From assembly GCA_021787595.1 (NCBI GenBank), contig JAJYLQ010000017.1:41300-105299 (forward strand): 64,000 nucleotides of DNA, written 5' to 3'. Of this stretch, positions 49,975 to 52,470 are shown piece by piece. The notes under the pieces were generated by a model. That model was not told the DNA's origin. It ran no database searches and worked only from the letters and a program-made list of their open reading frames with translations. Source of the DNA: Chloroflexota bacterium. Lineage in GTDB: Bacteria; Chloroflexota; Anaerolineae; Anaerolineales; Villigracilaceae. Position 1 is the first letter of the stretch, and each line of letters starts with the position of its first letter. Made by a program: the position numbers and the translations under genes.

Positions 49975-52470
49975 ATGAACAAAACTTCCCTCCGCAACTT
50001 CCTGGGTGAAATTCCGTTGGCTGCCGAATTGGATTGGACGCTTCGGCACGCTTCGCGGAATCGCGCCCGCAAAGATCATTACAACCTGGAACGCCTGCAA
50101 AAGTCGTTGCCCGCCGCGCGACTCGTAGCCGAGCGTTTTGCGCGCGAGGCACAACCCGGCAAAAAGATTCTCTTCTTTGCCACGCTTCATTATTGGATCG
50201 AACAGTCGGCGTACATTTCGCTTTTGCTCGCGGGCCTCGGACACAACGTCACGCTGATGACGCTGCCTTACTCCGAATGGCACAAGCGCATGGACAAATT
50301 CACGCAGCGCCAGCGGATTCTGCACACGCGCGATGCGCTTGCCGCGATGGATCCATTGGTCGAACACGTTTCTCTCCTCGACCTGAAACCGGCGTCCGTT
50401 TTACCGGCTCAACTCAGCGCTGACGTCGAAGAGGTCAGCCTGTGGGACGCGCAATACACGTTGATGCGCGAAGAAGTGGACATGAATAATCCATCGGATC
50501 GCGCGGTTTATGACCTGCGGATGGAACGCAATACATTCGCGGCGCGCACTGCCCTCGATTGGATGCAAGCCAACAAACCTGAAGTTGTCCTCGTGCCAAA
50601 CGGTTTGATTTTGGAAATGGGAATCGTTTTTCGCGTGGCTCGTTATCTTGGCATCCCAGCCATGACGTTTGAATTCAACGACCAGCGCGAACAAATCTGG
50701 CTGGCTCAAAATTCGTCCATCATGCGCATGGACACGGATTATCTCGTCGAAGCGCGCTGCCATCTGCCGATGACCGATGCCATGTACGAACGCCTGGCTG
50801 ATCTCGAAAACGCGCGGCGCGGCGCAAAAGTGTGGGGCAAATCCAAACGATTGTGGCAATATGTTTCCTCACAGGGCGCGGAGGAGACGCGCGCGCTGCT
50901 CGGCCTCGACAATCGCCCGGTGGTGATGCTCGCGGCAAATGTGTTGGGCGACAGCCTCACGCTGGGACGAAACGCCTTCGCCGAGTCGATGACCGAATGG
51001 TTGACGCGCACGATTCAATTTTTTGCAAGCTACCCCGAAGCTCGCGCTGAGCGAAGCCGGAGCGTCCAGTTTGTGATTCGAGTTCATCCGGGTGAGACGA
51101 TTGTTCCGAAAGCGCGGTCCATGGCGCAGGTCGCGCGTGAAGCATTGCCGAGTCTGCCCGAACATATTCACGTCATCGGTGCAACGGACAAGATCAACAC
51201 GTATGATTTGATCGAGATTGCCGATCTGGGTTTGGCGTACACGACGACGGTTGGCCTCGAGACAGCGATGAATGGCCGCCCGGTCATTCTTTGCGGTCAG
51301 ACGCATTATCGCGGCCGCGGCTTTACGATGGACCCGAATTCGTGGGACGAATATTTTGCCGCGCTCGAAAATGTCTTGAGCGATTTGCCCGCGCATCGTT
51401 TGAACGATGAGCAAATTGCCAAAGCCTGGAATTATGCCTATCGTTATTTCTTCGAATACCCGCGCCCGTTCCCGTGGCGTCTGATGAATTTTTGGGACGA
51501 CCTCGCGGTGTGGCCGCTCGACAAAGCGCTGGGCCCTGAAGGACTTGCCGCGTTCGGCGAGACGTACAAGTTCTTGGTTGGTGAGCCGTTTGCGTGGCCC
51601 TCACCCCTGCACCCCTCTCCCAATTTTGGGAGAGGGGATGGGGGTGAGGGGAAAAACACCAAACAGCAAGTGCGCGAATTTTATGACCAGATCGGCTGGT
51701 CACAAGTCGGCGAGGGACTTTATCAAAACGCCCGCTATGAAGACTTGCGCCCCGTTTCGCGCGACTACATCCACAAATGCCATTTGCGCGTTAACCGTTA
51801 CATCGCTTTGCGCGGGGACTTTTTGCTCGATGCTGGTTCAGGCCCAGTGCAATGGCCTGAATATCTGACGTATTCCGAGGGCTACCGCTTCCGCGTCTGC
51901 GCCGACATTTCGATCACGGCCTTGAAAGAGGCCCGTCAAAAAATTGGCGGACGTGGTTTATACGTTGTTGCCGATATTGCCAACCTGCCGTTCGAGCCCA
52001 ACGCATTCGATGGGATCGTTTCACTGCACGCCATTCATCATTTGCCGTTGAGCGAACATAAGCGCGCGTATGTTGAATTGAACCGTGTCTTGAAGCCGCA
52101 GCGGACGGCAGTTGTCATCAACGGCTGGCATAATCCCTTGCTGATGTGCGCAGCTGAACCATTGATTCGATTCGGGCGCTTGCTCACCGGTCGTTCAGCA
52201 AAGCGAAAGAAAGATTGGGCCGCTGAAGAAGATCAGGCGGGGACCTTTGTTGAAAAGATGACGCCGCGCTGGTTGAAGAATGAACTCAAAGGCGGAGTCC
52301 AATTTAAGATTTATCCGTGGCGCAGTCTCAGTCCGCGTTTTATGCGCTGGTTTGTGCGTCCGCAATTGGGCGGCAAGGCGTTTCTGCATTTCGTCTTTTG
52401 GCTGGAGGAACGCTTCCCGCGTTTCTTCGGCGAGAATGGACAGTATCCGTTGATCGTGATTCGGAAATAA
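49975..52470 (+). CDS. Two-domain protein: N-terminal CDP-glycerol/capsule-type glycosyltransferase-like region, C-terminal class I SAM methyltransferase
   Basis: N-term FVIRVHPGETIVPKARS...GATDKINTYDLIEIADLGLAYTTTVGLETAMNGRPVILCGQTHYRGRGFT (GT-B-like); C-term QVREFYDQIGWSQVGEG...LLDAGSGPVQWPEYL...VSLHAIHHLP (MTase). Confidence 0.82.
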   Translation: MNKTSLRNFLGEIPLAAELDWTLRHASRNRARKDHYNLERLQKSLPAARLVAERFAREAQPGKKILFFATLHYWIEQSAYISLLLAGLGHNVTLMTLPYSEWHKRMDKFTQRQRILHTRDALAAMDPLVEHVSLLDLKPASVLPAQLSADVEEVSLWDAQYTLMREEVDMNNPSDRAVYDLRMERNTFAARTALDWMQANKPEVVLVPNGLILEMGIVFRVARYLGIPAMTFEFNDQREQIWLAQNSSIMRMDTDYLVEARCHLPMTDAMYERLADLENARRGAKVWGKSKRLWQYVSSQGAEETRALLGLDNRPVVMLAANVLGDSLTLGRNAFAESMTEWLTRTIQFFASYPEARAERSRSVQFVIRVHPGETIVPKARSMAQVAREALPSLPEHIHVIGATDKINTYDLIEIADLGLAYTTTVGLETAMNGRPVILCGQTHYRGRGFTMDPNSWDEYFAALENVLSDLPAHRLNDEQIAKAWNYAYRYFFEYPRPFPWRLMNFWDDLAVWPLDKALGPEGLAAFGETYKFLVGEPFAWPSPLHPSPNFGRGDGGEGKNTKQQVREFYDQIGWSQVGEGLYQNARYEDLRPVSRDYIHKCHLRVNRYIALRGDFLLDAGSGPVQWPEYLTYSEGYRFRVCADISITALKEARQKIGGRGLYVVADIANLPFEPNAFDGIVSLHAIHHLPLSEHKRAYVELNRVLKPQRTAVVINGWHNPLLMCAAEPLIRFGRLLTGRSAKRKKDWAAEEDQAGTFVEKMTPRWLKNELKGGVQFKIYPWRSLSPRFMRWFVRPQLGGKAFLHFVFWLEERFPRFFGENGQYPLIVIRK
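51599..51654. repeat. CCCTCACCCC...CTCTCCC-AATTTT-GGGAGAGGGG...GGGTGAGGGG palindromic repeat inside CDS
   Basis: Encodes PSPLHPSPNFGRGDGGEGK in frame at the domain junction. Confidence 0.9.

What the first reader, a model, noticed from the sequence alone, without database searches (positions are those of the whole stretch)
51599..51654. Dispersed palindromic repeat encodes the linker between two enzyme domains (GT-like / methyltransferase)
CCCTCACCCCTGCACCCCTCTCCCAATTTTGGGAGAGGGGATGGGGGTGAGGGG is the same repeat type that sits intergenically 1.7 kb upstream (49917-49968) and at 62976. Here it is read in frame as PSPLHPSPNFGRGDGGEGK, exactly between the glycosyltransferase-like N-terminal region and a methyltransferase starting ...QVREFYDQIGWSQVGEG. 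It looks like a repeat that either fused two neighbouring genes or settled in a permissive linker. Rickettsia palindromic elements are a known precedent for protein-coding palindromic repeats.
Basis: partly seen in the sequence, partly recalled or inferred. Interest (0 to 1): 0.8.

Follow-up and report, generated by a model that had tools for sequence, protein, structure and literature searches.

The report
Palindromic repeat fused two sugar-enzyme genes
In one Chloroflexota genome a short repeated DNA hairpin sits exactly where two neighbouring genes normally end and begin, so both the stop and the start signal are gone and one long two-enzyme protein is encoded; the same hairpin also sits in frame inside at least a dozen other well-conserved proteins of this genome.

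Summary
A 54-bp near-perfect palindrome (51598-51651) is read in frame between a Capsule_synth-like glycosyltransferase and a SAM methyltransferase (ORF 49975-52470, 831 aa). In 93 other distinct GT-MT junctions examined from Anaerolineales relatives the genes are separate, each with its own stop and start; the window's is the only fusion. In the sister genome (90% identical) the 69-bp gap holds TAA...ATG; in the window the palindrome replaces it and both codons are gone. So the repeat-made fusion is supported; 'settled in an existing linker' is not, for this site. The repeat is the known CCCTCTCCC/GGGAGAGGG/GGGTGAGGG intrastrand-triplex motif, reported as always intergenic in E. coli K-12. 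Here at least 16 of 96 scorable copies in the window's genome, and 18 of 43 in a single-contig relative, lie in frame inside genes (SecA, aconitase, NuoL, CinA, LeuRS, AroA...). Nineteen window-genome sites were aligned with the sister: 14 copies are absent there and 5 sites carry an element-like stretch too. It works like Rickettsia palindromic elements but is a different, shorter, GC-rich family. Not shown: translation as one protein; and the sequence rests on one draft MAG.

The parts
48620..49912 (+). Upstream neighbour: ABC transporter ATPase with Wzt_C domain (polysaccharide export type)
   Evidence: ORF; PF00005 and PF14524
49917..49967 (.). Intergenic copy of the same palindrome, between the ABC ATPase gene and the GT gene
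   Evidence: hairpin -41.5 kcal/mol
49975..52470 (+). Fused ORF, 831 aa: GT + element-encoded linker + methyltransferase
   Evidence: open with no stop
49975..51597 (+). Glycosyltransferase-like half (residues 1-541); a separate gene in relatives
   Evidence: PF05159; 90% identical to G004
51598..51651 (.). 54-bp triplex-type palindrome, read in frame as the linker; occupies the place of the GT stop codon, the intergenic gap and the MT start codon
51652..52470 (+). Methyltransferase half (residues 560-831 plus stop); a separate gene in relatives, beginning M-(1-2 residues)-N-T-K-Q-Q-V-R-E-F-Y in most
   Evidence: PF08241; junction DNA
41300..41331 (.). Control copy: degenerate palindrome in the linker of an anciently fused methyltransferase-GT2 ORF (40570-42033, minus)

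Best explanation
A dispersed GC-rich palindrome of the intrastrand-triplex (TM/PIT) type came to occupy the short gap between a glycosyltransferase gene and the methyltransferase gene that follows it, replacing rather than merely lengthening the DNA there. The GT stop codon and the MT start codon were lost, and because the replacement (57 nt from the last GT codon to the conserved MT codons) is a multiple of three without a stop in that frame, the two genes became one open frame of 831 codons. The transcript is inferred to give one bifunctional protein joined by an unstructured Pro/Gly-rich linker. Shown: the DNA arrangement, the separate-gene state in all relatives examined, the loss of both codons, and the same replacement mode at other in-frame copies. 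Inferred: translation as a single protein, activity of both halves, and how the palindrome spreads.
For:: 94 distinct junctions, 1 fused. G004 has TGG AAG GAT TAA ... ATG GAA AAC ACC where the window has TGG-palindrome-AAA AAC ACC; 46 of 72 gaps of 40-399 bp carry an inverted repeat with arms of 8 or more (shuffles: mean 4, maximum 8), and 7 junctions (window included) hold a TM-like element, in the other six alongside an intact GT stop and MT start; the gap is thus a frequent landing place; other copies sit in frame inside conserved genes; 14 of 19 sites aligned with G004 lack the element there, and the length differences are multiples of three; 18 of 43 copies are in frame in the single-contig genome G067; both halves remain under purifying selection versus G004 (dN/dS 0.08 for GT, 0.07 for MT), with no clear excess of replacement changes on the window's branch; linker predicted without secondary structure.
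Against: Only one genome carries the fusion and no reads were available. Several contigs of this MAG end within about 20-250 bp of a copy, so these repeats do break assembly. An in-frame GTG at 51670 could start a shortened MT, although no ribosome-binding-like sequence is suitably placed. The fusion may be too recent for the selection test to show that it works. The structure model has low confidence (mean pLDDT 62).
Confidence: 0.8

Rival explanations
1. Assembly error: the true locus still has a stop and a start, and repeat collapse or misjoining at the palindrome produced the open frame.
For: Draft MAG of 63 contigs; several contigs end next to copies of this repeat; no reads available.
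Against: Both flanks are the correct neighbours, as in G004 on one contig. A collapse between two copies would change only the interior: the left edge already lacks the GT stop and the right edge already lacks the MT ATG. In-frame copies are also found in a single-contig genome, and 5 sites show element-like sequence in a second, independent assembly.
Confidence: 0.1
2. Two proteins are still made: the GT gains a C-terminal tail or stalls at the hairpin, and the MT starts internally at GTG 51670.
For: Direct reading of the sequence: an in-frame GTG lies a few codons into the conserved MT part; the very strong hairpin could hinder ribosomes.
Against: No stop codon ends the GT frame before 52468; the nearest G-rich stretch lies about 18 nt from that GTG; the residues that would be lost (N-T-K-Q-Q) are strongly conserved in relatives.
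Confidence: 0.12
3. The GT-MT protein was already fused and the palindrome only settled in its linker.
For: That is what happened to the MT-GT2 protein at 40570-42033 in the same window. The same MT family is also naturally fused to a sulfotransferase in other proteins.
Against: No relative examined has a fused GT-MT; the sulfotransferase fusions carry the MT at the N-terminus with a different partner.
Confidence: 0.03
4. The junction is a decaying locus: the fused ORF is a non-functional relic.
For: The MT lost its start codon.
Against: Frame kept through 831 codons; low dN/dS in both halves; SAM-binding motif DAGSGP intact and invariant among the aligned relatives.
Confidence: 0.05

Closest known systems
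Intrastrand triplex motif TM/TMECO (earlier PIT) of E. coli and more than 260 bacterial genomes (PMC4666352)
   Same: Same consensus blocks: CCCTCTCCC-loop-GGGAGAGGG-spacer-GGGTGAGGG; many dispersed copies; small sequence changes around the copies.
   Different: TMECO is reported as always intergenic in E. coli K-12; here many copies are inside genes in frame. The window copy is symmetric, with outer arms on both sides.
Rickettsia palindromic elements (RPE; PMC2229807, PMC10969869)
   Same: Palindromic repeats inserted in frame in unrelated conserved proteins and tolerated.
   Different: RPEs are 105-146 bp with family-specific peptides in Rickettsia; this element is about 54 bp, GC-rich, encodes Pro/Gly-rich peptides in more than one frame, and lives in Chloroflexota.
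Enterobacterial MITE fusions (ERIC/RU-1, RU-2, RU-3) and Neisseria Correia elements (PMC2229807)
   Same: Small dispersed elements whose open frames become fused to genes.
   Different: Longer (about 100-170 bp), several with TA ends and target-site duplication; no duplication was evident here.
Palindromic repeat CCCTCTCCCXX(X)GGGAGAGGG of Enterobacter sp. 638 (PMC2869309)
   Same: Same core sequence, 100 copies.
   Different: Described at 3' ends of genes as presumed terminators, not inside genes.

Membership tests
Intrastrand triplex motif (TM/TMECO) | Blocks CCCTCTCCC, GGGAGAGGG and GGGTGAGGG in order with short loops | tested here: met
   Window 51613-51650 reads CCCTCTCCC-AATTTT-GGGAGAGGG-GATGG-GGGTGAGGG; E. 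coli table
Intrastrand triplex motif (TM/TMECO) | High copy number, dispersed | tested here: met
   174 sites in own genome, 0 with the reversed control
Intrastrand triplex motif (TM/TMECO) | Intergenic location (as reported for E. coli K-12) | tested here: not met
   At least 16 of 96 and 18 of 43 copies in frame inside genes; this is an observation about E. coli, not a sequence criterion
Intrastrand triplex motif (TM/TMECO) | Forms a triplex in solution | not testable with these tools
   Needs CD, NMR or footprinting
Rickettsia palindromic elements | Palindromic repeat inserted in frame in protein genes | tested here: met
Rickettsia palindromic elements | Length about 105-146 bp | tested here: not met
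   Element is about 54 bp
Rickettsia palindromic elements | Sequence relation to an RPE family | not tested
   No RPE sequences were compared
MITE (transposase-mobilised) | Target-site duplication | tested here: inconclusive
   13 filled/empty comparisons show replacement of short host stretches and no evident duplication, but flanks have diverged
REP/RAYT elements | Copies flanking a Y1_Tnp (RAYT) gene | tested here: not met
   None of the six PF01797 loci in the own genome carries a copy within the stretch held

The most novel reading that the evidence does not exclude
The triplex-type palindrome is a mobile, protein-coding element of Anaerolineales. It repeatedly replaces short stretches at permissive sites, keeps the frame, hits the same loop independently in different genera (CinA, an amidohydrolase), expanded in the window's lineage (143 tight copies against 8 in the sister), and can create new bifunctional enzymes by erasing a stop and a start at once.
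Probability: 0.45. Interest if true: 0.75.

Novelty: new variant of a known kind. Interest (0 to 1): 0.62.

Why it matters
Protein-coding palindromes are best known from Rickettsia. Here a repeat family known as an intergenic triplex motif is found in frame inside core enzymes of Chloroflexota, with filled and empty sites in sister genomes, and at one junction it erased a stop and a start at once. That gives a concrete case in which a selfish-looking repeat made a gene fusion, and a set of sites where the mechanism of spread and the cost to the host proteins can be tested.

Tried and rejected
Y1_Tnp/RAYT as the mobiliser: six genes in the genome, none with copies in the stretches held. DUF559 nuclease as partner: in methionine synthase of the window's genome a DUF559 domain is flanked on both sides by copies, but DUF559 in MetH-sized frames is widespread in the family and, apart from that locus, only 3 of 27 DUF559 loci have a strict half-motif within 250 bp; kept as a lead only. 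Rfam: no match near a gathering score. Apparent fused frames in other relatives (long open_frame values) were fetched and all have a stop. A first alignment for folding (A1) placed MT homologues on the GT half and was discarded; A2 used tandem genes read through the stop. The MT-GT2 protein at 40570-42033 looked like a second repeat-made fusion but is fused in all 29 relatives examined. Solved-structure search: nothing significant for the GT, only generic methyltransferases for the MT.

Full report
The element and the ORF. At 51598-51651 the window carries CCCTCACCCCTGCACCCCTCTCCCAATTTTGGGAGAGGGGATGGGGGTGAGGGG, which folds into an almost perfect hairpin (-44.6 kcal/mol). It is read without a stop in a frame that runs from ATG 49975 to TAA 52468-52470. 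The first 541 residues match PF05159 Capsule_synth weakly (E 2.8e-6), the last 271 match PF08241 Methyltransf_11 (E 5e-16). The neighbours are an ABC-2 permease, an ABC ATPase with a Wzt_C domain and a PseB-type dehydratase, so the locus looks like polysaccharide synthesis and export.

Homologues of both halves. A protein search of relatives found the pair in tandem in most, with the window as the only full-length match without a stop. Junction DNA was extracted from the fetched loci and reduced to 94 distinct junctions; only the window is fused. In G004, 90% identical, the junction is TGG AAG GAT TAA, a gap, then ATG GAA AAC ACC; in the window TGG is followed by the element and then AAA AAC ACC. 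Both the stop and the start codon are gone. Two searches of 5.8 billion proteins found no GT-MT fusion; the second found the same methyltransferase family fused to a sulfotransferase, so this domain tolerates fusion.

A junction prone to palindromes. Of 72 gaps between 40 and 399 bp, 46 contain an inverted repeat with arms of at least 8 (shuffled gaps: mean 4, maximum 8). The palindromes belong to several unrelated types. Seven junctions, the window included, hold a TM-like element; in the six others the stop and start codons are intact beside it.

What the repeat is. The blocks are those of the intrastrand triplex motif described for E. coli and many other bacteria (PMC4666352) and of the Enterobacter 638 repeat (PMC2869309). 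In E. coli K-12 that motif is reported as always intergenic. The window's genome has 174 sites of the tight core. With the three-base-loop pattern it has 143, while G004 has 8, G002 20 and G005 10.

Copies inside genes. Stretches around copies were fetched and 102 copies tested, window included. A codon-usage gene caller put 69 between genes and the rest inside or at the edge of predicted ORFs. A stricter test, with both 210-nt flanks coding in the same open frame, passed 16 of 96. Hosts identified by Pfam include SecA (two copies), aconitase, NuoL, MeaB, CinA, UvrA, an alcohol dehydrogenase and ABC ATPases. For 20 sites the G004 orthologue was fetched and aligned: 13 are net in-frame insertions absent from G004; in UvrA a loop was substituted; 5 show element-like sequence at the same place in G004, one of them a tight copy; the methionine synthase site was not resolved. 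DNA comparison at 13 sites shows that short host stretches were replaced, without an evident target duplication. In G067, a single-contig genome of another genus, 18 of 43 copies pass the strict test, including leucyl-tRNA synthetase, a lipoyl ligase, AroE- and AroA-type enzymes and CinA. CinA and an amidohydrolase carry a copy in the same loop in both genomes while G004 lacks it, which suggests separate insertions; this rests on two proteins.

Selection and structure. dN/dS between the window and G004 is 0.08 for the GT and 0.07 for the MT; the counts of replacement and silent changes on the window branch (22/48 and 12/28) are not clearly different from those on the G004 branch (24/69 and 9/39). 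The AlphaFold model is poor (mean pLDDT 62.4) but gives no secondary structure to the linker.

A control in the same window. ORF 40570-42033 (minus) joins a methyltransferase and a GT2 enzyme, with a degenerate copy at the joint. All 29 loci compared are fused there, so this copy only lengthened an existing linker; G005, G007 and G028 show other palindromes in the same linker.

Limits. The fused state is known from one MAG; several of its contigs end near copies of the repeat. Translation was not tested. The in-gene counts depend on codon statistics except at the sites compared with G004. The literature search covered open-access papers only, so an earlier report of in-frame copies may have been missed.

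Noticed in passing
L181 (G000:C19:14600-17700), 1534-2100: The methionine synthase frame contains a DUF559 nuclease domain flanked on both sides by copies of the palindrome, all open. MetH-sized frames with DUF559 are common in the family, and in G002 tight copies also lie on both sides of the domain.
   Followed up: partly
window 40570-42033 (minus): Methyltransferase-GT2 fusion with a degenerate copy of the palindrome at the joint; fused in all relatives examined.
   Followed up: yes
window 48204-48587: A 23S_rRNA_IVP (four-helix bundle) gene lies between the ABC permease and ABC ATPase genes.
   Followed up: no
window 52480-52570: A different dispersed palindrome (TCATTGCGAG...GAAGCAATCTC type) follows the MT gene; the same type occupies the GT-MT gap in several relatives.
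   Followed up: partly
L241 (G000:C1), 1400-1970: A free-standing DUF559 gene is flanked on both sides by palindromes of another sequence; 23 of 28 DUF559 loci have an inverted repeat within 200 bp, although the control stretches were not matched for intergenic position.
   Followed up: partly
G000 contigs C1, C8, C13, C17, C19, C41: Several contigs end within about 20-250 bp of a copy of the palindrome, so the repeat breaks the assembly.
   Followed up: no
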